Assembly: GCA_945868825.1 (NCBI GenBank)
Contig: CAMBMM010000004.1
Coordinates: forward strand, 62,001 to 126,000
DNA: 64,000 nucleotides
From: Sphingobacterium thalpophilum
GTDB taxonomy: Bacteria > Bacteroidota > Bacteroidia > Sphingobacteriales > Sphingobacteriaceae
Direction: 5' to 3'
The stretch's first letter is position 1, and every line of letters starts with the position of its first letter. Of the stretch, positions 9,408 to 21,125 are shown one piece after another. The translations under genes were made by a program, and so were the position numbers. The notes under the pieces were generated by a model. That model had not been told where the DNA came from and searched no databases. It worked only from the letters and a program-made list of their open reading frames with translations.

Positions 9408-10427
9408 ATGGCCAATATTTTAATCATATACACCGGCGGAACCATTGGCATGGTGAAAGATAAAAAAAGTGGGGTACTCTTACCGCTAAATTTCGATCAT
9501 ATAAAACACAATGCGCCCGAGTTGGAGCGCATGGAACACCGCCTAACGGTACATTCGTTTAACCCCATTATCGATTCTTCGGATATGAACCCCAAAATTT
9601 GGGTAGCCTTAGCCGAACTTATCGAAAAAAATTACCACCAATACGATGGCTTTGTAGTGCTACACGGCTCCGATACCATGGCCTTTACCACCTCGGCATT
9701 AAGCTTTATGCTCGAAGGTTTGACTAAACCCGTGGTTTTTACCGGATCGCAATTGCCTATTGATGAAATTAGAAACGATGCCCGAGAAAATTTAATTACG
9801 GCTATTTTAATTGCATCCGAGAAATTCGAAGAGCAAGCCGTGGTACCCGAAGTATGCATCTTTTTTGATTACCAATTATTACGAGGCAATCGAGCCACCA
9901 AATACAATTCAGCTAAATTTGAGGCTTTTCAATCGCCAAACTACCCTTTATTAGCCGAGGCCGGCGTGCATATCGACTTTTTTAGTAATGCCATTGCCAT
10001 GCCTTTAGATAAACCACTTAAAGTACACAAAGACTTCGATAGTTCGGTGGCGGTACTCAAACTATACCCTGGCATCAGTCAAAAAGTAGTCGATGCGGTG
10101 TTAGAATGCGATTGCAAAGCCATTATTATGGAAACGTTCGGATCTGGAAATACCACCACCGATCCGGTTTTTTTAGATTCCTTACGTCGGACCATTGCGC
10201 AAGGAAAACTGATTTTAGACATTTCGCAGTGCCGAGGTGGATCGGTAGAATTGGGCCGCTACGAAACCAGTATTCAGCTTAAAGAAATGGGTGTAGTGAG
10301 CGGCTACGATATGACCTTTGAAGCCGCTGTGACCAAACTGATGTTCTTACTGGGTTCGGGCAAACCCATGGATGTGGTAGCCCGCCTACTCGAATTAAAT
10401 TTACGAGGCGAATTAACAGAAAATTGA
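9408..10427 (+). CDS. ansA: Type I (cytoplasmic) L-asparaginase
   Basis: 339 aa. Hydrolyses asparagine to aspartate and ammonia. The catalytic elements are YTGGTIGM (Thr nucleophile, residues 8-15), the second Thr in HGSDTMAFT near 86, the FTGSQLPIDEIRNDA segment near 110, and GSGNTTTDP near 245. There is no signal peptide, so it is the cytoplasmic type. It lies 26 nt after tatD and is followed within 20 nt by the tRNA-Ser gene. Confidence 0.93.
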   Translation: MANILIIYTGGTIGMVKDKKSGVLLPLNFDHIKHNAPELERMEHRLTVHSFNPIIDSSDMNPKIWVALAELIEKNYHQYDGFVVLHGSDTMAFTTSALSFMLEGLTKPVVFTGSQLPIDEIRNDARENLITAILIASEKFEEQAVVPEVCIFFDYQLLRGNRATKYNSAKFEAFQSPNYPLLAEAGVHIDFFSNAIAMPLDKPLKVHKDFDSSVAVLKLYPGISQKVVDAVLECDCKAIIMETFGSGNTTTDPVFLDSLRRTIAQGKLILDISQCRGGSVELGRYETSIQLKEMGVVSGYDMTFEAAVTKLMFLLGSGKPMDVVARLLELNLRGELTEN

Positions 10428-10447: not shown

Positions 10448-10537
10448 GGAGAGATGTCAGAGTGGTCGAATGAGCTAGCTTGGAAAGCTGGTATACTCGT
10501 AAGGGTATCGAGGGTTCGAATCCCTCTTTCTCCGCCA
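10448..10537 (+). tRNA. tRNA-Ser (anticodon GGA)
   Basis: 90 nt with encoded CCA. The acceptor arm GGAGAGA pairs with TTTCTCC with one G-T wobble, discriminator G. The anticodon arm CTAGC / GCTGG carries loop TTGGAAA, anticodon GGA at 10482-10484. A long variable arm (TACTCGTAAGGGTA) is typical of type II serine tRNAs. The T arm is GAGGG-TTCGAAT-CCCTC. Followed by a terminator at 10550. Its last 23 nt recur at 20992-21014, on the far side of the accessory region. Confidence 0.96.
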
Positions 10538-10549
10538 GTTTATACTAAT

Positions 10550-10580
10550 GCCATCGTTTTTAAACGATGGCTTTTTTGTT
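10550..10580 (+). terminator. Terminator of tRNA-Ser
   Basis: Hairpin GCCATCGTTT / AAACGATGGC followed by a T run. The same stem recurs at 21027-21048 after the second copy of the tRNA 3' end. Confidence 0.85.
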
Positions 10581-10615
10581 TTCGTTCTTTCTATAGCTAA
10601 ATATCTATTTAATAG

Positions 10616-10651
10616 TGTACGTTGTCAAGTTCATTTGGACAAGTGTTAAAC
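10616..10651 (+). repeat. Left terminal inverted repeat (36 bp)
   Basis: It starts TGTACGTTGTCAAG and ends AAGTGTTAAAC. The reverse complement at 20917-20952 matches at 33 of 36 positions, the last 22 without mismatch. Weaker similarity continues about 10 bases further inward. It sits 35 nt after the tRNA-Ser terminator. Confidence 0.85.
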
Positions 10652-10774
10652 AAAACTAATCGAGTGTTTCCACAACCCCCACAAAATAAAAAAATAAAAA
10701 AAGTGCTGATATACAAAAAAATAATTCTAGATTGCAAAACTTCTTAAATCAAAGTGCAATTAGTTTAAGACAAA

Positions 10775-11119
10775 ATGAATAAAAAATTTACTCCGCGTTA
10801 TTTTTTATTAGTGATACTCTTGGCAATGTCATGCGAAAAGAGCTTGAATTCCCCTATAATATTACCTATGATTATAGCATCGGCTGTCTCCGGTCTTGAA
10901 GTTACACCAGCAATATGCGGTGGGAATGTGATGAGCAATGGTGGTGGGACAATAACGGCTGCAGGAGTGATTTGGAGTGATGCACCAATCCAACTATTTC
11001 TTTGGACCACAAAAACAATAGATAGGACTTCAATAGGGTCTTTTACAAGTAATATAACTGGGCTATCTCCTCTCAGTGATGTAGATTGTCAGCATAAAGT
11101 GGCCATAAGTGTGACCTAA
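10775..11119 (+). pseudogene. Truncated lipoprotein with one FnIII-like repeat
   Basis: 114 codons. A lipoprotein-type signal (YFLLVILLAMSC, Cys near 20) leads into one copy of a repeat common in large Bacteroidota surface lipoproteins. The repeat runs from VTPAICGGNVMSNGGGTITA through AAGVIWSD to GSFTSNITGLSPLSD. In intact relatives the next residues are usually a Tyr-rich strand (YYVRAYA-like), and many repeats or a C-terminal domain follow. Here the frame turns unrelated after LSPLSDV and stops. It is therefore probably the 5' remnant of a longer gene cut by rearrangement, lying between the left inverted repeat and the left transposase fragment. A short intact lipoprotein is less likely. 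Confidence 0.6.
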
Positions 11120-11152
11120 CAAAGTTATACTTTGAGCCATGAATTGCTCACA

Positions 11153-11265
11153 ATGAAAGAAAAAGAACCAAAGAATGCGAAGGCGGTTATCAAGAATATT
11201 CGCCAAGAACCAAGCGTAAATTCAGCTCTGAGGAAAAAATCAGATTTGACATTGTAACTAATTAA
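11153..11265 (+). pseudogene. Transposase orfA N-terminal remnant (IS3-like), left copy
   Basis: From ATG 11153 the frame reads MKEKEPKNAKAVIKNIRQ and then goes out of register. In the next frame it continues KFSSEEKIRFDIV and stops at 11265. Restoring one base after the CAA codon near 11206 would join the two parts into a run like the basic N-terminus of IS3-family OrfA HTH proteins (R-x-K-[FY]-S-x-E-E-K-I-R pattern). I see no orfA remainder, no orfB and no DDE motif. A 37-bp core (11204-11240) is repeated with one mismatch at 20796-20832. Assignment to IS3 is from motif memory. Confidence 0.6.
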
Positions 11266-11358
11266 AATCTAATTTAGTATAAGCTTAGAACTATTCACTC
11301 ATAATTGCGTCTACGTACAACCATAAGGTTGGGGTATTTTAAAATAAATTATAGACAG

Positions 11359-13416
11359 ATGAAAAAAATTCTTACACTTTTATTAATGGTAATTGCTGTG
11401 CAAGTATTGGGGCAAACATATCCTATCACTAGTATAACCATTTCATTACCGGCAAATCCCGATGCAAACACGGCTAATTGGGGAAGCGGAACCTCCTTAT
11501 TTACCATAACCGCCAACTCCAAAGCGGTAAACGGAAAGGTTGATGGCTATGTTACGGAAAGTAAAGTATTGGTAACTATTAAAAAGGGCGGGGCTAAAGT
11601 ATGTGGTTCATTTACCGCTAATACAGCTCCTGCATCCAATTTTAATACGCTTACCAAAGTTTGGAGCGGCAGTAATGCGGTTTCATTATTAGGACAGGGC
11701 TGCGTGTTGCCTGCGGGTGATTATGAACTTACCGTGCAATTTTTTGGTACTGGAGCGACCGGGCTTGCCGGGCTTGCTCCTTTAAGCGAAGAAAAAACAA
11801 AGCCATTTTCAATAAGAGCGAAAGAGCAGCTAAGCTATCAACCGCCGCAGGCTATTGCTCCGGCAAATGGCACTGTTTTAAGTGAAATTGACATTAAAAA
11901 GCCCATAGCATTCCGCTGGACACCCGTTATTCCAAGGTCGCAAGAGCCGGTAACCTACCGCTTAAAGGTTTGGCAATTGATGCAGGGGCAAAACGGTTCG
12001 GAGGCAATGGCCACAAACCAACCCATAATTACCAAAGATGTTGACAACCTTACGCAGACTATGATTACTAGTTTAATCTCCGGGCCTTGTAAACCTCCAT
12101 ATTTATGTGATTTTGTTTGGAATGTACAAGCACTTAACCGGGAAGGGAAACCGGTAGGAGGAAATAATGGGATGAGTGAAGCATTGAAATTCAATGTGCA
12201 ATCTGTAAATGATGCTCCATCAAAAATTACTCTGGTTTTCCCTGCAAATGGTTCTACCATCTCTGCCAAAGACAAGCCAAAATTTACATGGACGCATGAA
12301 AAGCAAACCGCCGAGTCATCGAGTTCTTACAAAATAAAGATCATCGAGATTATTGGAGATCAATCACCTGAAGTGGCGCTAAGAACCAATAAACCGCATT
12401 TTGAAAAAGATAGTTTGAAGGAGCAATCTTTTCAATATCCTTCTTCTGCCAAAATGTTTATAGCTGGGAAAAAATATGGATGGTATGTACAGGCAAAAGA
12501 AAGTGATGGAAAGTCTGTTGGTTCTAATGATGGAATGAGTGATGTTCGGGTGTTTAGCGTTATATCAGCAGATGTAGCTATCACCAACTTTAAAGTCAGT
12601 TGCGGGAATGTATATGGATCTTATACATATACACTAACTGCAGAAAATCCCGGAAATAATCCTTTTAATACAACCTCAATTACTTTTACAAGTCCGGGTG
12701 GATCAATATCGGGAGCAACTTTTACCCCTCCTTCATCAAGTACGGTTATTAATCCAGGTTCTGCTAACGCAGTTACATTTACGGGCGGATTTAATTACAC
12801 AGGAATTTATCCTGCGGTTGTATACACTACAATAAATGGAACCCAATTAGGAGATATAAGTCTCCCTAGTATTGATACAGAAGTGGATAGTATATATGCG
12901 TGTATTTGTCATGACTGCGACACGGCTCTATTCAGTTTCACACCTTCTGGTATTACACCCGGGGCCAATAATAACCAAATTAACCTGGCAGGCAATATAA
13001 GCGTAAGCGGCCTGCCGGCAGTTTATGGGCTTGAGATCCAGGTACAATCCTATAATTATAGTGCAAGTCCTTCTGCTTGCAGCAACGGGGTAACAGGCAT
13101 CGAACAATCAGGAGTATTTTTAATGCCAAGCACAAGCATCAATGGAATAACATCGATACAAATGTTTAATGAAACGACTTCCGGAAGTTCGAACAATAAT
13201 GCCTCTAAAACTATAAAACTTGTAAGTACCACAGCTTTTCCCAATAGCATTCCTGTAAACTTAACAATAGGGTTGCCGGGCCCATTACCAGGGCTTGACA
13301 GAGATTGCTGCAAAATAAAATATGATCTGTGCATTAAAGTAACAGTCTTTTACGATAAAGAGGCTTGCAAATCGTGTGTATTCACTTATTGTTTCCCTTC
13401 TTTCAATAATCAATAA
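11359..13416 (+). CDS. Secreted FnIII-like surface protein with Cys-rich C-terminal domain (cassette gene 1)
   Basis: 685 aa from ATG 11359 (MKKILTLLLMVIAVQVLGQ, a clear Sec signal); the frame also opens at 11305 but that extension has no signal. Layout: N-terminal beta domain about 20-155; FnIII-like module about 159-280 with FRWTPVIPRSQEPVTYRL and FVWNVQALNREGKPVGG; a second, more divergent module about 285-404 (FTWTHEKQTAE, GWYVQAKESDGKSVGS); an Ig-like segment about 407-515; a C-terminal domain about 518-685 with D-C-C at 649-651 and later Cys residues (CKSCVFTYC). It lacks a recognisable T9SS type A or B sorting domain. The C-terminal domain is shared with the next gene, 5 nt downstream. 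The specific function is unknown. Confidence 0.8.
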   Translation: MKKILTLLLMVIAVQVLGQTYPITSITISLPANPDANTANWGSGTSLFTITANSKAVNGKVDGYVTESKVLVTIKKGGAKVCGSFTANTAPASNFNTLTKVWSGSNAVSLLGQGCVLPAGDYELTVQFFGTGATGLAGLAPLSEEKTKPFSIRAKEQLSYQPPQAIAPANGTVLSEIDIKKPIAFRWTPVIPRSQEPVTYRLKVWQLMQGQNGSEAMATNQPIITKDVDNLTQTMITSLISGPCKPPYLCDFVWNVQALNREGKPVGGNNGMSEALKFNVQSVNDAPSKITLVFPANGSTISAKDKPKFTWTHEKQTAESSSSYKIKIIEIIGDQSPEVALRTNKPHFEKDSLKEQSFQYPSSAKMFIAGKKYGWYVQAKESDGKSVGSNDGMSDVRVFSVISADVAITNFKVSCGNVYGSYTYTLTAENPGNNPFNTTSITFTSPGGSISGATFTPPSSSTVINPGSANAVTFTGGFNYTGIYPAVVYTTINGTQLGDISLPSIDTEVDSIYACICHDCDTALFSFTPSGITPGANNNQINLAGNISVSGLPAVYGLEIQVQSYNYSASPSACSNGVTGIEQSGVFLMPSTSINGITSIQMFNETTSGSSNNNASKTIKLVSTTAFPNSIPVNLTIGLPGPLPGLDRDCCKIKYDLCIKVTVFYDKEACKSCVFTYCFPSFNNQ

Positions 13417-13421
13417 ACATC

Positions 13422-16400
13422 ATGAAAATGAAAAAAATATTACCAACAATAAAAACATGCCTGCTCTTATTTTTGGGGGTAGCAACTGCCCTGCATGCTA
13501 ATGCGCAGGTAGTATCAAGCGACATTTGCACTACTTTAGGTGATAATGCTGCAATTAGTTTAAAAGATGCCTCAGGAAATCCATTAACATCTATAAAGAC
13601 GGGTCTCGACTTTAACCTGATTCTTACCTTGCCGGGAGGGCTTTGCCAGGGAGGTAAGTATGAGGTCACAATAACCACTTCCGATAACCTGGTATTGGGA
13701 AATCCAAATCCAAATTATCCATTTTATAGTACAGGTACAAATCAATTTGAAAATTCTACGGTAATATCCTCAAACAGTGGGTTAGGAATTAATATACCAT
13801 TTAAATTTAAAGCAGGTGTAACTTGTAATAATGAAAAAGGAACATTTGATGTAACGATAAAATTAATATGCGATGGAGTTGCTGACAGGGTATGTACTTT
13901 TAAACAAATATCCCTGAATGCCAAAGCACAAAATTATTGGGTTGTAGAAAAGAAACATATTTTTGGTAATTTATCTGGAGGAGGGATTTACTGGGACGTT
14001 ATCATCAAAAACACAAATGGCACGCCCGGTATAGGTGATTTAAATATTTTTAATGGTTCTATTACGGATGCTGTGTCTAGCGGCCAAATAATTTCTGTTA
14101 CCGGCGGCGGACTTTCTGGCCTTACTGGTCTGAATACTTCAACTGCTTCATGGAATACCGGCACCATTTTAAGCACAACTACTCAGGTAGTGTATCGCGT
14201 TCAAACTTACAGTTGTATGCCTGCAGGTACAGTGGTAACAAATTGTGTAAAGTATAATTTTTGCCTTGGTAAAGAAGTAACATTGGTAGCTAACCCAGCT
14301 AAAGGAGATATTCAAAAAGCAAGGAGTTCTGATTCTAAAATATCCTCTGCGGCTAGCATTCCTCCTTTTGGACCAGCTCAAAAACCATGTTGTGATAGGG
14401 CAACAGGTGAGGTATGTGCATCTGTAACACTTGTTGGCACAGCTGTTACTAGTGCTAATTTTAGCAAATCTCTCACTTATGCCAATAATCTAAACTATGC
14501 ACCAGGATGCGAAGGAGAATACCAAATTATAGTGGCAAATAATGGGAACATTCCTTTAAATAACTTGGTAATAACCGATACTTTTCCCACTGGTATCCAG
14601 GTATTTCAAATAAGTGTTACGGCAAGTGGCGCTAGTATGTATTACGATATTCCGTTCGGATCTACTACAACTGGTTTTAATACGTCAGGCCCTAATTATT
14701 CTCAAACCTGGACTTCTGGTTTTCCAACCCAATTTAATCTAAACACTACTTCAGGTACATTGCTTGGAGGAGTAATTATTATTAAAATAAAGTTTAAGAT
14801 ACTTGCTGCGATTGGAACAACTATTATAAATTGTGCTAATCTTAATTACAGCGGTACTTATGATGGATGGAGCAATTGGTGCGGAATTCAATTGCCCCCT
14901 CCTAATCAAAATGTATCAGCTCCTCAAAGTTGTGTTTCATTTATAGTACAAGAGCCTAAAGCCATACCGGGCATTAGAAAATGTATCCCAACTGGACAAC
15001 AATCATTTTCTGTAGGTGATATCATCCCTTTCAGAATTGTTGTTTCTAACCATGGTGCGGCAAGTTTCTCTGGCAATCTGGCAGATTTATTAGGGACTAC
15101 TTCTCTTCAAAATCTTGGCTTGGTAGCTGGTTCCGTTCAATATTCCTATGGAATGGGACCTTATAGCCCTTATTCTACCACGCCTGGTTGTATAAATAGT
15201 TTTAGTAATATTTCAACTACACCTCCATCTTGGGTAAGTGTAACTCAACAAACTTCACAAAACTTAGGATGGAGTATAAGTAACATGCCCGGAAATTGTG
15301 AATTAGCAACTGCTTCTTATCTTGTCATTGATTTTAAAGCGACAGTATTGCCACAATCTTTTGGCAATTACATAAACACTGCTAAGCTAGTTACATCAAC
15401 TGGCACACTAAATGGACTTGCTTACTACAATGTATTGAGAACGGCTCAAATTTCAACAACAAAGCAGGTAAATACGGCATTTGTAGAGCCGGGGCAATCT
15501 TTCAATTATATTATAGTTGTAAAAAATGAGGGAAGTGTGGCTTTGAAAAATATCAAGGTGGAAGATACGTTGCCTTCTTGTGTAACTTATACTGCCAGAA
15601 GCGCCAAGTACTTGGATGTAAATGGTACCATGATATCCTCTGTTAGTGTAGCATGGGCATCCCCCACTTTTACTTTTCCTTCTACTTTGATTCTTCAACC
15701 CGGGGAAAGTGTTGAATTAACAGTAACGGTTACTAGAAATGCAAATGACCAAAATAAGCAATGTTGCAACCCGTCGGCAAGAGGAAGCGGGATTACCAAC
15801 GATGCGTCGGCTGATGTAATTTCGGATGTTGATGGTCCGGTATGCGTAACGAGTAGTCTTTGCTGCAATATTGAAGACCTGAATGTTAGTTTTGGGACTG
15901 CAGCGATCAACGGTGGAATTGTCCCGGTATTTTTGATAACCGGCGGCACGGTACCGATTCAGGAAATTGAAATCTCCCTGATCGATTATCATGCAGAATA
16001 CAATGCAGTTGCTTGCAAGCCCGCCAATATGGGTAACCTATTCGGGCATATTCAACCTTTTAACGGTTACTATGGTTCTAATTACTATAATTTCAATTCC
16101 CTGCCTTTTTCTGGTTCACCGTCATTACAGCTCCAAACTGTTGTAAACCCTGTAAATAATTCATTGACTTGGTCTGGATCTAACCCTATTAATCTTTCAA
16201 CAGCGGGGGGATTGAACTTTAACGGTTTGATTGCTTTAAATTTTATAGCACCGGATATCGTTAACCTAGATTGCTGTACCGGTAGAGTGTTTTACTGCTT
16301 TAAGGTGAGGGTAAAAGATGCCAATTGTAATGTTTGCGAAAAAATAGTCTGTGGCTCTTTTGAAATACCTAAGGCAACACAACCTCACTGGAAAAATGAA

Positions 16401-16514
16401 AAAGCAAAAGACCAGTTTAAGTTAAAATCTCTTGAGGGCAACCAGATTCAGGGAAATAAATTAATGAATGGCGAAAGCTTGGAGGAATTTATTAAAAGAA
16501 ATATATCTAAATAA
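13422..16514 (+). CDS. Large secreted DUF11-repeat protein with Cys-rich C-terminal domain (cassette gene 2)
   Basis: 1030 aa with a Sec signal (MKMKKILPTIKTCLLLFL...HANAQ). An N-terminal beta region (about 25-290) precedes at least three DUF11-like beta-sandwich repeats near 355-480, 495-670 and 679-790. Hallmarks are VANNGNIPLNNLVITDTFP and VKNEGSVALKNIKVEDTLP. A domain at about 813-985 has D950-C951-C952 followed by YCFKVRVKDANCNVCEKIVC, and matches the C-terminus of the 685-aa protein. A basic, hydrophilic tail of about 45 residues ends the chain. DUF11 repeats are typical of long surface stalks or adhesins, which is the inferred role. No T9SS sorting domain is seen. It begins 5 nt after gene 1. 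Confidence 0.8.
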   Translation: MKMKKILPTIKTCLLLFLGVATALHANAQVVSSDICTTLGDNAAISLKDASGNPLTSIKTGLDFNLILTLPGGLCQGGKYEVTITTSDNLVLGNPNPNYPFYSTGTNQFENSTVISSNSGLGINIPFKFKAGVTCNNEKGTFDVTIKLICDGVADRVCTFKQISLNAKAQNYWVVEKKHIFGNLSGGGIYWDVIIKNTNGTPGIGDLNIFNGSITDAVSSGQIISVTGGGLSGLTGLNTSTASWNTGTILSTTTQVVYRVQTYSCMPAGTVVTNCVKYNFCLGKEVTLVANPAKGDIQKARSSDSKISSAASIPPFGPAQKPCCDRATGEVCASVTLVGTAVTSANFSKSLTYANNLNYAPGCEGEYQIIVANNGNIPLNNLVITDTFPTGIQVFQISVTASGASMYYDIPFGSTTTGFNTSGPNYSQTWTSGFPTQFNLNTTSGTLLGGVIIIKIKFKILAAIGTTIINCANLNYSGTYDGWSNWCGIQLPPPNQNVSAPQSCVSFIVQEPKAIPGIRKCIPTGQQSFSVGDIIPFRIVVSNHGAASFSGNLADLLGTTSLQNLGLVAGSVQYSYGMGPYSPYSTTPGCINSFSNISTTPPSWVSVTQQTSQNLGWSISNMPGNCELATASYLVIDFKATVLPQSFGNYINTAKLVTSTGTLNGLAYYNVLRTAQISTTKQVNTAFVEPGQSFNYIIVVKNEGSVALKNIKVEDTLPSCVTYTARSAKYLDVNGTMISSVSVAWASPTFTFPSTLILQPGESVELTVTVTRNANDQNKQCCNPSARGSGITNDASADVISDVDGPVCVTSSLCCNIEDLNVSFGTAAINGGIVPVFLITGGTVPIQEIEISLIDYHAEYNAVACKPANMGNLFGHIQPFNGYYGSNYYNFNSLPFSGSPSLQLQTVVNPVNNSLTWSGSNPINLSTAGGLNFNGLIALNFIAPDIVNLDCCTGRVFYCFKVRVKDANCNVCEKIVCGSFEIPKATQPHWKNEKAKDQFKLKSLEGNQIQGNKLMNGESLEEFIKRNISK

Positions 16515-16555
16515 AGAGTTCACCTAAGGCATAAGCAACATTCGATCTTAAAACG

Positions 16556-18301
16556 ATGAACTATCCTACCAAAATAGCTTTGTTTATGGCCTTATTCCTG
16601 GCTTTCGAGTCAAATGCCCAAGAGAAGAAGAAACCTATCTCTATTGGTGGCGATATGGGTATTTGGTATGACGGTTATGGGCTCAATAAAGCTCCAAGCT
16701 CGTCTGTGCCTGATTTTTATCAGGCCCGTCGCCCATCCAACCTCTTCCGGTATTCCTTTAATCCAACTATCGCTGTTGGCAAATGGAACATTCCGCTTAA
16801 CTTCAACTTTAGTCCGATGCAAACCAATTTAACTACCCCTTCTACTTCTTTAGGTGGTAAACAAAGCATCTGGCAGTTTTTAACTAATCCTGTGAATAAT
16901 TTTGGCATTCGCCCTAAAATTGGCACTACTGAGATCTTTCTGGGCACACAATACCTGAAATATAGTGATCTTAGTACCGGCGATCTAGGTGTGTTTGGTT
17001 ATGGCGTTAATTTGGCGCCTGGAAAATTTAGGATTAAGCTGTTTAATGGGGTATCGCAAAGACCTGTCAATTATCTGGCACCTACCATTATTCCATTATC
17101 AGATGGCGTGACTGGCGCTTACCAGCGCAATCAGTGGATGGGCCAGTTAGGTCTTGAAAAGGAAGGTAAATACTTTGCAGGCATCAACTTTGTTAAATCT
17201 ATTGACAAACTGAGTTCTATAAGCTCAGCGCCCTTGTCTCCCATTGATCCGCAGGAAAATATGGTCGTTAGCTTTTTAACCAAAGTTACTACAGATAAAG
17301 GCTGGAATTACCATGTAGAGCTAGGACAGAGTTTTTATACCCGGAATTTAAATACTCCGCTGTCATCCAGTCCGGTCGAAGATTTTAAGCCTTTTATCAG
17401 CTCCCATACTTCCACAAATAAAGATAATGCGGTAATGCTGGGTATTGCAAAAAAGGGAAAAGACTGGGAAGCAGGCGCCAAGTTCAATTATTACGGTGCA
17501 GGGTATTATACAGCAGGCTACCCGTTTATGAACAACGACCGGATGGAATACCTGGCCAATACACGCTTTAATGCCTGGAAAAAGAAAATGAATGTAGTGG
17601 CCAGTATCGGCCAGCGCTTTGGCAATCTGAGCCGTATTTCCGGTCCCAGTCTAACCAAACAGATTATAGCCAATGTGAATGTGTTTACCCAGTTTACTGA
17701 CCGCTTCAGCATGAATACCAGCTTCAATAATTTTGGCTTTAATGTTCCAGGTTTTTTTGGATATAAAAGCGTAAGTAATGAGCTAAGCGTAAACCCTGCT
17801 TATGCCTGGATTAATAGTGAAATGAGCCATTTGATAAGCGGTACTTATACCTGGAGCAAGTATGATGAAACAACTTTAAACGTAATGACCAACAACAATA
17901 CTCAAACTGCTCTAATTCTTTACGTTCCCACATTTTTTAACAAAAAAATCAGTCCGGATTTTAGCCTGATGTGGTTCAGAAACACGGCCCCTTCCATTAC
18001 CCTAAACCTGCTAAGCGCTACCAGCGGAGTGACCTGGGAACCTGCCCCAAAAATTAACCTGAAGGCGCAGTTACAATATAACCTAAGCACTATGGCACCG
18101 TTTACGGCCAATAAACATCTATTGGCTACCAGCGGTTTTGACTGGGACATTTACAAAAAGCTAACCTGGCAATTTTCAATGACCGTAAATTTATACCGTT
18201 TCGGTACCGAATTGCCCGGAAGTTTGTTTACGCCGGCTTATTCAGGTAGTCCGGGATATTCAGAAAGTACGCTTAGAACAGGTCTTCAATACAAATTTTA
18301 G
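16556..18301 (+). CDS. Outer-membrane beta-barrel protein, unknown family (cassette gene 3)
   Basis: 581 aa with a signal peptide (KIALFMALFLAFESNAQ). The rest is alternating amphipathic strands rich in aromatic and Gly/Asn residues (FRYSFNPTIAVGKWNIPLNF, FFGYKSVSNELSV, INLKAQLQYNLST). It ends in the strand LRTGLQYKF with a terminal Phe, the classic signal for barrel insertion by BAM. It is larger than the PorP/SprF barrels of T9SS clusters (about 300-340 aa) and I see no plug domain. Leucine codon CTG is frequent: by rough hand count about 14 of 50, against about 3 of 30 in tatD. Context suggests a pore or anchor for the two large secreted proteins; that is inference. Confidence 0.75.
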   Translation: MNYPTKIALFMALFLAFESNAQEKKKPISIGGDMGIWYDGYGLNKAPSSSVPDFYQARRPSNLFRYSFNPTIAVGKWNIPLNFNFSPMQTNLTTPSTSLGGKQSIWQFLTNPVNNFGIRPKIGTTEIFLGTQYLKYSDLSTGDLGVFGYGVNLAPGKFRIKLFNGVSQRPVNYLAPTIIPLSDGVTGAYQRNQWMGQLGLEKEGKYFAGINFVKSIDKLSSISSAPLSPIDPQENMVVSFLTKVTTDKGWNYHVELGQSFYTRNLNTPLSSSPVEDFKPFISSHTSTNKDNAVMLGIAKKGKDWEAGAKFNYYGAGYYTAGYPFMNNDRMEYLANTRFNAWKKKMNVVASIGQRFGNLSRISGPSLTKQIIANVNVFTQFTDRFSMNTSFNNFGFNVPGFFGYKSVSNELSVNPAYAWINSEMSHLISGTYTWSKYDETTLNVMTNNNTQTALILYVPTFFNKKISPDFSLMWFRNTAPSITLNLLSATSGVTWEPAPKINLKAQLQYNLSTMAPFTANKHLLATSGFDWDIYKKLTWQFSMTVNLYRFGTELPGSLFTPAYSGSPGYSESTLRTGLQYKF

Positions 18302-18314
18302 AAAGTATTCTATA

Positions 18315-19214
18315 ATGAAAAAATACCATTTATTGTTAACTATAGCAATGTTCCTGATTGCTCAGGTGGCCAGGGCTCAAATCACTCTTAACCTTGCTTT
18401 AAACAATAGGCCACAGCCCTGGTTGTCTGATTGGGTAAATCCGGTTAACGGTCAGATGATTATCTCCTATATGATGGGACCGGCGCTGAATGATCCTTCC
18501 GTAAAATTAAAAACGACCCTTCTTGATGAGAGGGGAAGCATAATAGGTGTCTCGAATATTAATTCTGCACGAATATACACCTTAAGACCAGGAGTAAACC
18601 AGTTCAGCATAGCCGATGCACTCCAGCTGCAAAATTTAGCGTTGCAGGGAAATTTACAAAATCTGCTTCAACGTACTGGACGTTTAACTGCGGGTCAATA
18701 TCAATTAATGGTTGAAGTAATGAATACCAAGGGCGATGTTGTTCGGGCAATACAAACCCGTCCATTTTTTATCACTTCCTACCAGTTGCCTATTTTAATG
18801 CAGCCTGCCAGCGGAAGCAGCCTGGATGCCCACCTGGCTCAAAACATAATTATATTTCGTTGGACTAACTTAATACCCAGCTCCCAGGAGCTTATACAAT
18901 ACCGAGTACAGGTGTTTGAAATTCTGCCCGGACAAACAGCTATGCAGGCTTTTAGGGGTAATCGTCCTTTATTAGACGAACCAGCCATAAGAGGTACTAC
19001 ACAATATATCTGGCGGCCTAATTTGCCTATGTTGGATTCTACAGCCAACAAACAGTTTATCTGGACGGTACAAACACTCGATGCAGAGGGATTGCCCATC
19101 CCCGGAATGGATATGAACATCCAGGGAAGAAGTGAGCCGGCTATATTCAGTATTGTGAACCAAATGGGTACTATGGATATGAACAGGAAGAATGAAGATC
19201 CAATAAAACGCTGA
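18315..19214 (+). CDS. Exported two-domain protein with FnIII-like module (cassette gene 4)
   Basis: 299 aa. Signal peptide (LLTIAMFLIAQVARAQ). The N-terminal domain (about 22-150) opens with ITLNLALNNRPQPWLSDWV and ends LTAGQYQLMVEVMNTKGDVV. This layout reminds me of the TANFOR-type domain of Tannerella surface proteins, a low-confidence resemblance. Residues about 157-277 form an FnIII-like module (IIFRWTNLIPSSQELIQYRV, FIWTVQTLDAEGLPIPG) clearly related to the first module of the 685-aa protein. No lipobox. The stop and the next start share one base (TGATG), so translation is coupled with the OmpA-type gene. Probably periplasmic or surface-exposed and part of the same complex. Confidence 0.72.
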   Translation: MKKYHLLLTIAMFLIAQVARAQITLNLALNNRPQPWLSDWVNPVNGQMIISYMMGPALNDPSVKLKTTLLDERGSIIGVSNINSARIYTLRPGVNQFSIADALQLQNLALQGNLQNLLQRTGRLTAGQYQLMVEVMNTKGDVVRAIQTRPFFITSYQLPILMQPASGSSLDAHLAQNIIIFRWTNLIPSSQELIQYRVQVFEILPGQTAMQAFRGNRPLLDEPAIRGTTQYIWRPNLPMLDSTANKQFIWTVQTLDAEGLPIPGMDMNIQGRSEPAIFSIVNQMGTMDMNRKNEDPIKR

Positions 19215-20758
19215 TGAAACGTATAATCTGTATAATCTTACTGGCTTGTTTGGTTCCGCGGCTATCCGCCCAGGTTAATCAGGAAAAAAAGCCATCGACC
19301 CTAGTTTTCCATATTTTTTATAACGATTTTAAGACTGCTCAGTTAATGAGAACCACCTCGTTAAAGAATGTACTTGACAAAGGTCAATGGAGTAATATTG
19401 GCGATATGCAAATGGGGTTTGGGTTCAACTACCTGAAGGGAATCAGTAAGAAAATTGATGCGATTGCTACGCTCGATGGCAGTTCAACGGACTATCTTTT
19501 TAAGAATGGCAGCACCAATGGCAGCAGTAAATTTTTATTGGATGCCAATGCCGCACTGAATATAAAACTGCTTAGCGATAGTCATACACTTGTGCCATAC
19601 TTTTCAATTGGAGCCGGTCTTTCATCTTATAATGGCAAAACTGGGTTCTATATTCCTGGAGGAGTAGGGATACAGTTCAATTTATTTAACGAGGCCTTTC
19701 TTCTTACCAATATTCAATACAGATCTGCGTTAACTTCAACTGTAAATGATCATTTTTATTACTCGATTGGTGTAGGTACCAATATCGGCAAAAAGAAAAT
19801 AAAAGCTGTAAGAGTGGTAGAAGTAACAGCATTGCCCGAACCTGTGAAGAAAGAAATAATAATACCTTTCAGGGACATTGTTATTACTGTAATGGATGAA
19901 GCTACAGGACAGCCCTTACCCTATGTGGAGGTAGTTTTAAACGAACCTGGGGGCAAAAGACTAAGCGGTTCTACTGATGTGGATGGGAGAGTTACTTTCA
20001 ACAAATTGACACCCGGTGATTATACAGTTAGTGGTTTGCTTAACAATATCAATACATCTGTGCAGAATATTAAAAAAGGCAATTTTGAGACAAACGAGAA
20101 TCAAATTAACATTAAAATCACCCACAATGATCCAAGATATACACTTTCGGGTGTGGTCATTAATAAAACCAAAAATATTCCCGAAGTAGGGGTAGACGTG
20201 AATGTCACCAACGAAACTAAGCAAAGCATCATAACAAAACAAGGTCATGCAGGAAATGGCATTTTTAATGCACAATTAGAAGCAGAGAGCGACTTTACTC
20301 TTGTTGGCAAAAAGGCAGAGTATATCTCTACCATTGAAAGAATCAGTACAAAAGGATTGAACAGGAGTACAACATTATATATAAAACTGGAATTGGGCAT
20401 TGAAGAAGCAAAAGTCGGTCAAAGTATTGTGATGAATAATATTTATTATGAAGTTGGCAAAACAGACATCAATACTACTTTCTCAACTGATCTAGATAAA
20501 TTAATCCAATTCCTCAAGGATAATCCTGAAACAAGGCTTGAGATACAGGGTCATACAGATAATTCCGGAAGCCTGAGCCTGAACAACAAGCTAAGCCAGT
20601 ACAGGGCAAACAGTGTGGTAGATTATCTGACAAAAAATGGAATAAACAAGAGCCAACTAATTGCCAAAGGTTACGGGCCATCGTTGCCCGTTGCAGACAA
20701 TGCGACCGCTGAAGGAAGAAAAAAAAATAGAAGGGTTGTGATGAAAGTAATACAATAG
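19214..20758 (+). CDS. OmpA-family outer-membrane protein with two CarboxypepD_reg-like domains (cassette gene 5)
   Basis: 514 aa. Signal peptide (IICIILLACLVPRLSAQ). Residues about 25-200 look like a small beta-barrel. Residues about 222-290 (ITVMDEATGQPLPYVEVVL, TDVDGRVTFNKLTPGDY) and 308-390 (YTLSGVVINKTKNIPEVGV) form two carboxypeptidase-regulatory-like beta domains. Residues about 408-514 form the OmpA C-terminal peptidoglycan-binding domain (NNIYYEVGKTDI, EIQGHTDNSGS, IAKGYGPSLPVADN, RKKNRRVVMKV). It probably anchors the cassette's envelope complex to the cell wall. Its stop at 20756-20758 is followed in the same frame by a transposase remnant. Confidence 0.85.
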   Translation: MKRIICIILLACLVPRLSAQVNQEKKPSTLVFHIFYNDFKTAQLMRTTSLKNVLDKGQWSNIGDMQMGFGFNYLKGISKKIDAIATLDGSSTDYLFKNGSTNGSSKFLLDANAALNIKLLSDSHTLVPYFSIGAGLSSYNGKTGFYIPGGVGIQFNLFNEAFLLTNIQYRSALTSTVNDHFYYSIGVGTNIGKKKIKAVRVVEVTALPEPVKKEIIIPFRDIVITVMDEATGQPLPYVEVVLNEPGGKRLSGSTDVDGRVTFNKLTPGDYTVSGLLNNINTSVQNIKKGNFETNENQINIKITHNDPRYTLSGVVINKTKNIPEVGVDVNVTNETKQSIITKQGHAGNGIFNAQLEAESDFTLVGKKAEYISTIERISTKGLNRSTTLYIKLELGIEEAKVGQSIVMNNIYYEVGKTDINTTFSTDLDKLIQFLKDNPETRLEIQGHTDNSGSLSLNNKLSQYRANSVVDYLTKNGINKSQLIAKGYGPSLPVADNATAEGRKKNRRVVMKVIQ

Positions 20759-20872
20759 CATTTAACCAAGAACAAAGACAAAAAGATTCAGGAATCAAGA
20801 ACCAAGCGAAAATTCAGCTCTGAGGAAAAAATTCTCAAAAAAACAACAAACAAAAAACTATTTTACAAATAA
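20759..20872 (+). pseudogene. Transposase orfA N-terminal remnant (IS3-like), right copy
   Basis: Directly after the OmpA-type stop and in its frame, an open stretch reads IQESRTKRKFSSEEKI and then runs into low-complexity Lys/Asn/Thr codons until TAA at 20870-20872. The 37-bp core 20796-20832 matches 11204-11240 with one mismatch. Here the frame through TKRKFSSEEKI is intact, which supports the one-base loss inferred in the left copy. There is no start codon and nothing of the catalytic part. Confidence 0.6.
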
Positions 20873-20916
20873 TAATAAACCCCCTATTGCAAATTAACAA
20901 TTAATCACTTGGTTTG

Positions 20917-20952
20917 GTTTAACACTTGTCCAAATGAATTTGAAGACGTACA
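20917..20952 (-). repeat. Right terminal inverted repeat (36 bp)
   Basis: Reads GTTTAACACTTGTCCAAATG... on the plus strand and ends CGTACA; it is the inverted partner of 10616-10651 with three mismatches. The outer dinucleotides are TG and CA at the two element ends, as in IS3-family elements. Confidence 0.85.
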
Positions 20953-20991
20953 AGGTTTTTGTTCTTTTAAATTATACCAAAATATCACACA

Positions 20992-21014
20992 TTCAAGTCC
21001 CTCTTTCTCCGCCA
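20992..21014 (+). pseudogene. Duplicated 3' end of tRNA-Ser (23 nt)
   Basis: Matches tRNA-Ser 10515-10537 at 21 of 23 positions, from the T-loop through CCA. The two differences lie in the T-loop (TTCAAGT here, TTCGAAT in the tRNA), and both are plausible T-loops. No 5' part of a tRNA precedes it. It fits either an att-site duplication from integration into the tRNA or the remnant of a second tandem tRNA-Ser. Confidence 0.85.
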
Positions 21015-21026
21015 TTGTACGTTAAA

Positions 21027-21058
21027 GCCATCGTTTAAAAACGATGGTTTTTTTGTTT
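21027..21058 (+). terminator. Second copy of the tRNA-Ser terminator
   Basis: The hairpin has the same CCATCGTTT / AAACGATGG stem as 10550-10571, followed by a T run. The bases between the tRNA end and the hairpin differ between the two copies. Confidence 0.8.
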
Positions 21059-21125
21059 TTTAAAGTCTACAAATCCAAAAAATAGCCTCCAATTGCGTAA
21101 GTTTGTAGGGCTGTAAAGCCTACCT

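What the first reader, a model, noticed from the sequence alone, without database searches (positions are those of the whole stretch)
12910..16370. Shared cysteine-rich C-terminal domain in two otherwise different secreted proteins
The last about 165 residues of the 685-aa protein and residues about 813-985 of the 1030-aa protein align by eye. Both have an E-I-x-[VI]-x-x-x-x-Y strand and an A-C pair early. Both then have D-C-C, Y-x-C-x-K-V-x-V, and a C-x-x-C-x(4)-C cluster at the end. Upstream of it the proteins differ (FnIII-like versus DUF11). A domain shared only at the C-terminus of adjacent cargo-like proteins is what a sorting or attachment signal looks like. I know no name for it.
Basis: seen in the sequence. 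Interest (0 to 1): 0.8.

Follow-up and report, generated by a model that had tools for sequence, protein, structure and literature searches.

The report
Paired cysteine-rich domain in barrel island
Two neighbouring exported proteins of a lake Sphingobacteriales bacterium do share an unnamed ten-cysteine immunoglobulin-like domain, but relatives place it in mid-protein or in front of a real export signal, so it looks like a paired docking or display module of a small gene island built around an outer-membrane barrel rather than a new sorting signal.

Summary
P0001 residues 511-685 and P0002 residues 809-986 are homologous. Their direct pairwise match is insignificant (BLASTP E 0.19), but profiles of orthologues match at 97-98% probability, above cysteine-preserving controls. 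The domain has exactly ten cysteines in all 14 core copies, has no Pfam, NCBIfam or PDB-sequence relative, and is predicted as an Ig-like beta-sandwich (pLDDT 84.6). Relatives occur in Chitinophagaceae, Ignavibacteriales and other Bacteroidota-group genomes. In 15 of 24 loci two copies form an adjacent A-then-B gene pair, or one fused protein.

The 'sorting signal' reading fails as stated. 18 of 41 copies are internal. Five precede a genuine T9SS type A tail above Pfam's cut-off, and one precedes a beta-lactamase domain. The barrel link is real but partial (8 of 24 loci).

The surroundings are the larger find. The five genes sit on a 10.5-kb island between tRNA-Ser and a copy of its 3' end, absent from three congeners. 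P0004 and the N-terminus of P0001 are remote relatives of the TANFOR domain of Bacteroidetes polymorphic toxins. In Sphingobacteriales, 27 of 30 sampled TANFOR genes have a homologue of this barrel directly next to them.

Best reading: a paired docking/display domain of a TANFOR-like barrel module. Mechanism inferred.

The parts
10448..10537 (+). tRNA-Ser(gga) at the left border of the island
   Evidence: ARAGORN
10515..10582 (+). Left att-like direct repeat: tRNA-Ser 3' end plus terminator hairpin, 68 nt, 84% identical to 20992-21059
   Evidence: the repeat finder D1; hairpin
10616..10659 (+). Left arm of a 44-nt, 89% complementary inverted repeat just inside the island
   Evidence: the repeat finder I1
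11359..13416 (+). Protein A (P0001, 685 aa): signal peptide, TANFOR-like + Fn3, second Fn3, Ig-like domain, Cys-rich C-terminal domain
   Evidence: signal peptide read by eye
11359..12231 (+). TANFOR-like + Fn3 region of protein A (about residues 1-291), homologous to P0004
   Evidence: P4-family HMM 98 bits; hhalign 99.2% against TANFOR set
12889..13413 (+). Cys-rich Ig-like domain, A copy (residues 511-685), 10 Cys
13422..16514 (+). Protein B (P0002, 1030 aa): signal peptide, DUF11-type repeats, Cys-rich domain, 44-residue charged tail
15450..15758 (+). DUF11 domain of protein B directly before the shared domain
   Evidence: PF01345 2.5e-13, TIGR01451 1.2e-20
15846..16379 (+). Cys-rich Ig-like domain, B copy (residues 809-986), 10 Cys
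16556..18301 (+). P0003, 581 aa, putative outer-membrane beta-barrel of the family that neighbours TANFOR genes; barrel fold not proven
   Evidence: structure prediction failed
18315..19214 (+). P0004, 299 aa, TANFOR-like + Fn3 protein without a C-terminal effector region
   Evidence: hhalign 99.3% to TANFOR set, TANFOR part alone 96.1%
19214..20758 (+). P0005, 514 aa, OmpA-type protein with a carboxypeptidase-regulatory-like domain
   Evidence: PF00691 2.1e-21, PF13620 4.8e-10
20909..20952 (-). Right arm of the 44-nt inverted repeat
   Evidence: the repeat finder I1
20992..21059 (+). Right att-like direct repeat: copy of the tRNA-Ser 3' end and hairpin
   Evidence: the repeat finder D1, sequence

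Best explanation
The shared segment is a new Ig-like, disulfide-rich protein module, not a transport signal in its own right. Shown: homology of the two copies; ten conserved cysteines; a predicted Ig-like beta-sandwich; ancient A and B types inherited as an adjacent A-then-B pair; fusion of A and B into one chain in one lineage; co-residence with a putative outer-membrane barrel, TANFOR-like proteins and an OmpA-type protein on a tRNA-Ser island in the window genome. Inferred: both proteins leave the cytoplasm by signal peptide. Protein A is held at the barrel through its TANFOR-like N-terminus, which resembles P0004. The A and B copies of the Cys-rich domain dock onto each other in the oxidising envelope or outside it, so that the DUF11 stalk protein B is tied to A at the cell surface. 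OmpA-type P0005 would anchor the complex to peptidoglycan. Where the barrel is missing, some relatives of B carry a T9SS tail instead.
For: Domain homology. Ten Cys in 14 of 14 core copies, 8 to 13 elsewhere. Ig-like model, pLDDT 84.6, pTM 0.81; closest solved folds are generic Ig-like domains, many from adhesins. Adjacent A-then-B pair in 14 loci and A+B fused in both large proteins of L112. Core A and B copies form two well-supported clades with matching internal order, and their identities correlate at 0.95 over 21 genome pairs. P3-family barrel in 8 of 24 loci, three times fused behind a TANFOR-like/Fn3 N-terminus. TANFOR-like character of P0004 and the P0001 N-terminus. Barrel ORF beside 27 of 30 TANFOR genes. 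Island borders and absence from the same site in three congeners.
Against: No direct evidence that A and B touch: matching trees are also expected from vertical co-inheritance or joint transfer. Nine loci have a single copy without a partner, so pairing is not obligatory. The barrel nature of P0003 rests on alternating strands, mostly aromatic C-termini and lack of other matches; its model failed (pLDDT 27). If P0003 is an even-stranded barrel, the N-terminal TANFOR-like domains of the fusion proteins would lie in the periplasm, which leaves open on which side A and B sit.
Confidence: 0.4

Rival explanations
1. One reading: the domain is an export or retention signal read by the 581-aa barrel, as type B C-terminal domains are read by PorP/SprF proteins.
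For: In the window neither protein has a type A or type B tail, both end in or near the domain, and the barrel gene follows directly. Cargo gene then barrel gene is the layout of type B substrates and their shuttles (PMC12618676, PMC9143113). 23 of 41 copies lie within 50 residues of the C-terminus.
Against: 18 of 41 copies are internal, also in three barrel-linked loci (L086, L112, L113). Five copies precede a Por_Secre_tail above cut-off. Six pair loci have no barrel of this family in the stretch fetched. Barrels of the family sit beside TANFOR genes without the domain in the stretches fetched. P0003 has no NCBIfam match, so no sign of PorP/SprF membership.
Confidence: 0.22
2. The domain is a ligand-binding or structural Ig-like module of surface adhesins, and the adjacent pair is a duplicated adhesin gene whose products do not touch.
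For: Predicted fold resembles generic Ig-like adhesin domains, none above Z 7.3. Partners are DUF11, PKD and Fn3 repeats. Single copies exist in T9SS substrates.
Against: The N-terminal parts of A and B are unrelated, so it is not a simple gene duplication. The A-then-B order is constant over distant lineages and the two are fused in L112.
Confidence: 0.27
3. The domain is an effector (toxin-like) domain: it takes the C-terminal place that toxin domains occupy in TANFOR proteins.
For: Protein A begins with a TANFOR-like region and TANFOR proteins are polymorphic toxins (PMC7073777).
Against: No catalytic-looking conserved residues: the columns invariant across the core alignment are Cys, Gly and Pro. 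The domain recurs in mid-protein in T9SS substrates and in both partners, and the fold is Ig-like.
Confidence: 0.03
4. The similarity is convergent: cysteine-rich secreted segments of biased composition.
For: The window pair alone is not significant.
Against: Reciprocal HMM matches at 38 and 50 bits exceed 700 cysteine-preserving shuffles (maximum 22) and reversed sequences; one HMM recovers both copies genome after genome.
Confidence: 0.02

Closest known systems
T9SS type A C-terminal domain (PF18962, TIGR04183)
   Same: Predicted Ig-like beta-sandwich; often at the C-terminus of exported Bacteroidota proteins; the window genome has T9SS (SprA 2635 bits; four PF18962 proteins).
   Different: About 175 residues with ten Cys versus a 75-position profile; no profile match; the new domain lies before a type A tail in five proteins.
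T9SS type B C-terminal domain (PF13585, TIGR04131) with PorP/SprF shuttle
   Same: Cargo genes next to a putative barrel gene; OmpA-type protein nearby, comparable to the role of PorE (PMC10202324).
   Different: No match to either profile in P0001, P0002 or P0003; the domain is not confined to C-termini.
TANFOR polymorphic toxins (TIGR02542; Jana et al. 2020, PMC7073777)
   Same: P0004 and the N-terminus of P0001 are homologous to TANFOR + Fn3; the barrel family is the usual neighbour of TANFOR genes in Sphingobacteriales.
   Different: TIGR02542 itself does not hit them at E 1 or below; the C-terminal part here is the Cys-rich Ig-like domain, not a recognised toxin domain; the paper's main text has no occurrence of 'barrel'.
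DUF11 / B_ant_repeat surface proteins (PF01345, TIGR01451)
   Same: Protein B is built of these repeats.
   Different: The Cys-rich domain is not part of those families.

Membership tests
T9SS type A C-terminal domain | Match to PF18962 / TIGR04183 at the C-terminus | tested here: not met
   No PF18962 match in P0001 or P0002 at E 1 or below; no TIGR04183; no Pfam or NCBIfam family matched by the 14 copies beyond stray weak hits
T9SS type A C-terminal domain | Position at the extreme C-terminus | tested here: not met
   18 of 41 copies followed by 74 or more residues
T9SS type A C-terminal domain | Directs export by T9SS | not testable with these tools
   Needs a reporter fusion
T9SS type B C-terminal domain with PorP/SprF shuttle | Match to PF13585 / TIGR04131 | tested here: not met
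   No such match in P0001 or P0002
T9SS type B C-terminal domain with PorP/SprF shuttle | Neighbouring barrel belongs to the PorP/SprF family | tested here: not met
   P0003 has no Pfam or NCBIfam match at E 1 or below; the ten-member family has no coherent Pfam match. Fold comparison impossible because the model failed
T9SS type B C-terminal domain with PorP/SprF shuttle | Cargo gene linked to a barrel gene | tested here: inconclusive
   8 of 24 loci have a P3-family barrel in the fetched stretch
TANFOR proteins | N-terminal TANFOR domain (TIGR02542) | tested here: inconclusive
   Curated model silent on P0001 and P0004; profile comparison with TANFOR proteins 99.2-99.3%, TANFOR part alone 89.6-96.1%
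TANFOR proteins | C-terminal toxin domain, in the same or the next protein, with immunity gene | tested here: not met
   No toxin domain in any of the five proteins; the five genes fill the module
TANFOR proteins | Barrel of this family next to the gene (association found here) | tested here: met
   P0003 lies 13 bases before P0004; 27 of 30 TANFOR loci in Sphingobacteriales, 2 of 11 mostly weak hits elsewhere
Ig-like beta-sandwich domains | Two-sheet sandwich of about seven strands | tested here: met
   Confident model with generic Ig-like folds as nearest structures; no specific superfamily, best Z 7.3

The most novel reading that the evidence does not exclude
The barrel family of P0003 is a dedicated outer-membrane secretion or display partner of TANFOR and TANFOR-like proteins, separate from the T9SS translocon, and the paired Cys-rich domains are the tag or coupling that ties DUF11 stalk proteins to it; the whole is carried between strains on tRNA islands.
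Probability: 0.2. Interest if true: 0.8.

Novelty: new variant of a known kind. Interest (0 to 1): 0.55.

Why it matters
How TANFOR polymorphic toxins cross the outer membrane is open; the one paper found on them supposes T9SS export (PMC7073777). A putative barrel found directly beside 27 of 30 sampled TANFOR genes in Sphingobacteriales is a concrete candidate for a partner, and the window shows a compact island with the same barrel, two TANFOR-like proteins and a new paired Cys-rich domain. If the domains dock, this is a new way of building two-protein surface complexes in Bacteroidota. The new domain can also be given a profile, which would name many proteins now without annotation beyond DUF11 or 'hypothetical'.

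Tried and rejected
Direct pairwise comparison of the two window segments (BLASTP, shuffled local alignment): not significant, hence the move to orthologue profiles. A longer shared region (Ig or DUF11 plus domain): local score 79 against a shuffle maximum of 77 suggested it, but upstream profiles do not match, so rejected. PDB sequence search with the domain: one match at E 0.12, treated as chance. PDB sequence and Pfam searches with the barrel family: nothing coherent. Structure of P0003 with a four-sequence alignment: pLDDT 27, discarded, no fold search made. N-terminal barrel fused to protein A in Thermoflavifilum, Hydrotalea and Chitinophaga: suggested by eye, no Pfam support, alternation score no higher than that of Ig-like domains, so left as a possibility only. 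Absence of a specific fold relative in the VIA-align list is not evidence of a new fold. Compositional shift of the island: none seen (38-42% GC against 38-40% in flanks).
Full report
What was checked. The two proteins and the motifs are present at the stated place. The A copy is P0001 residues 511-685 (12889-13413); the B copy is P0002 residues 809-986 (15846-16379). By direct comparison the pair is not significant (BLASTP E 0.19; local score within the range of shuffles). Orthologues settle it. With three sequences a side hhalign gives 93.6%, with seven a side 97.4-98.1%. HMMs made from one type alone recover the other at up to 38 and 50 bits, while 700 shuffles that keep every cysteine in place reach at most 22 bits. 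The regions just upstream do not match.

What the domain is. Alignment of 14 copies from the window and six named contigs shows ten invariant columns, eight of them cysteine; each of the 14 copies has exactly ten cysteines. Ten cysteines in exported proteins suggest five disulfides (inference). No Pfam, NCBIfam or PDB-sequence family matches it beyond stray weak hits. A model made with the 14-row alignment has pLDDT 84.6 and pTM 0.81. Foldseek and VIA-align place it among generic Ig-like sandwiches, many of them adhesin domains, best Z 7.3, with no specific relative.

Where else it occurs. With the first six-row profile, 3 of 295 Bacteroidia genomes hit, all already known, and 13 of 197 genomes of the family that includes Thermoflavifilum and Hydrotalea (Chitinophagaceae), nine of them convincingly. 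With the 15-row profile, 13 of 395 genomes of the phylum as grouped by the tool hit, including several outside the class. Named carriers of the full-length B protein are the Lac Pavin Sphingobacteriales MAG, an uncultured Bacteroidia bin, three Thermoflavifilum, Hydrotalea sandarakina and an Ignavibacteriales MAG. The domain is thus rare but widely scattered.

Position and partners. Over 24 loci and 41 copies, 23 copies lie within 50 residues of the C-terminus and 18 are followed by 74 or more residues. In five proteins the domain is followed by a Por_Secre_tail above Pfam's cut-off (L087, L116, L121; L118, L120), with two more just below it (L115, L117). In L086 it is followed by a beta-lactamase domain. 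A signal that must be last to work would not sit there. In 14 loci an A gene is followed directly by a B gene, and in L112 two large proteins each carry an A copy and then a B copy. In the tree the seven core A copies and the seven core B copies form separate, well-supported clades with matching internal order; the distant copies are not resolved. Identities of A and B across genomes correlate at 0.95. This is what two domains that work together would look like, but joint inheritance alone would give it too.

The barrel. A profile of P0003 homologues finds the same family in the window and its near twin, in L123, L024 and L086, and, fused behind a TANFOR-like or Fn3 region, in L112, L113 and L128: 8 of 24 loci with the domain. 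It is not seen near the pairs of Thermoflavifilum, Hydrotalea and Chitinophaga. The fold is not proven: the model failed, no family matches, but alternating strands are enriched (20% of windows against 5% in permutations) and most members end in an aromatic residue or close to one.

The TANFOR link. In five Sphingobacteriaceae loci the gene after the barrel encodes a very large protein that begins with a TANFOR domain, the mark of a class of Bacteroidetes polymorphic toxins (PMC7073777). Of the 30 best TANFOR loci from 201 genomes of the order, 27 have a P3-family barrel ORF in the 1500-base flanks. In a phylum-wide sample only 2 of 11 mostly weak TANFOR hits do, so the link is strongest in this order. 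P0004, 13 bases behind the barrel gene, is homologous to these TANFOR + Fn3 regions (99.3%; TANFOR part alone 96.1%), and so is the N-terminal part of P0001 (99.2%; TANFOR part alone 89.6%). The curated model TIGR02542 does not hit them, so they are called TANFOR-like. A word search of that paper's main text finds no occurrence of 'barrel' or 'OmpA', and it is the only paper in the library that names the domain.

The island. The five genes lie between tRNA-Ser(gga) and a second copy of its 3' end and terminator hairpin (68-nt direct repeat, 84% identical, 10,477 bases apart), with a 44-nt inverted repeat just inside each end. No other copy of the hairpin is in the window. In three congeners the same tRNA-Ser lies between the same asparaginase gene and the same polyprenyl synthetase gene, with one unrelated gene or little else in place of the module. 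The module is therefore gained or lost as a unit, which argues that the genes work together. No integrase was seen in it.

How it most likely works. Shown: homology, fold prediction, pairing, linkage and island. Inferred: signal peptides take A and B out of the cytoplasm; the TANFOR-like part of A, like P0004, is held at the barrel; the A and B copies dock; OmpA-type P0005 anchors the complex. The genome has T9SS (SprA; four type A substrates), so T9SS export of B by an unrecognised route remains possible. The sorting reading stays as a rival at 0.22 because in the window the domain does end protein A and a barrel gene follows, the layout of type B substrates and PorP/SprF shuttles (PMC12618676, PMC9143113).

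Verdict. Real, unnamed domain; not a general C-terminal sorting signal; most likely a docking or display module. The new association between this barrel family and TANFOR proteins is the more consequential result and was not part of the finding.

Noticed in passing
window 10448-21059: The five-gene module is a 10.5-kb island between tRNA-Ser(gga) and a duplicated tRNA 3' end plus hairpin, with 44-nt inverted repeats inside; the site lacks the module in three congeners (L177-L179). No integrase found.
   Followed up: yes
L130-L159: 27 of 30 TANFOR-domain genes sampled from Sphingobacteriales genomes have a homologue of the window's 581-aa barrel in the adjacent 1500 bases.
   Followed up: partly
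L123, L125, L126, L127, L080, L089, L092, upstream of the modules: By eye, a large sensor-kinase-like protein (about 950-995 aa) and a small response regulator (about 213-257 aa) recur just upstream of the pair or of the barrel; the window island lacks them.
   Followed up: no
L086:7635-13763: A 2042-aa secreted protein joins PKD repeats, the Cys-rich domain and a beta-lactamase-type (PF00144) domain in one chain.
   Followed up: no
L088, L090, L092, gene before the barrel: By eye, collagen-like lipoproteins of 500-700 aa with repeated G-x-x-GDYY...YGPK blocks directly precede the barrel-TANFOR pair in several Sphingobacteriaceae.
   Followed up: no
window 10775-11119: A 114-aa lipoprotein-like ORF with a truncated Fn3-like segment lies at the left end of the island, possibly a gene remnant; the twin genome has a different 155-aa ORF there (L025).
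   Followed up: no
window 11204-11240 and 20796-20832: A 37-nt direct repeat (97% identical) flanks the five genes inside the inverted repeats.
   Followed up: no
window 9408-10427 and L127:17518-18594: A type I asparaginase gene lies close to the pair both in the window and in Thermoflavifilum, on opposite sides; possibly coincidence.
   Followed up: no
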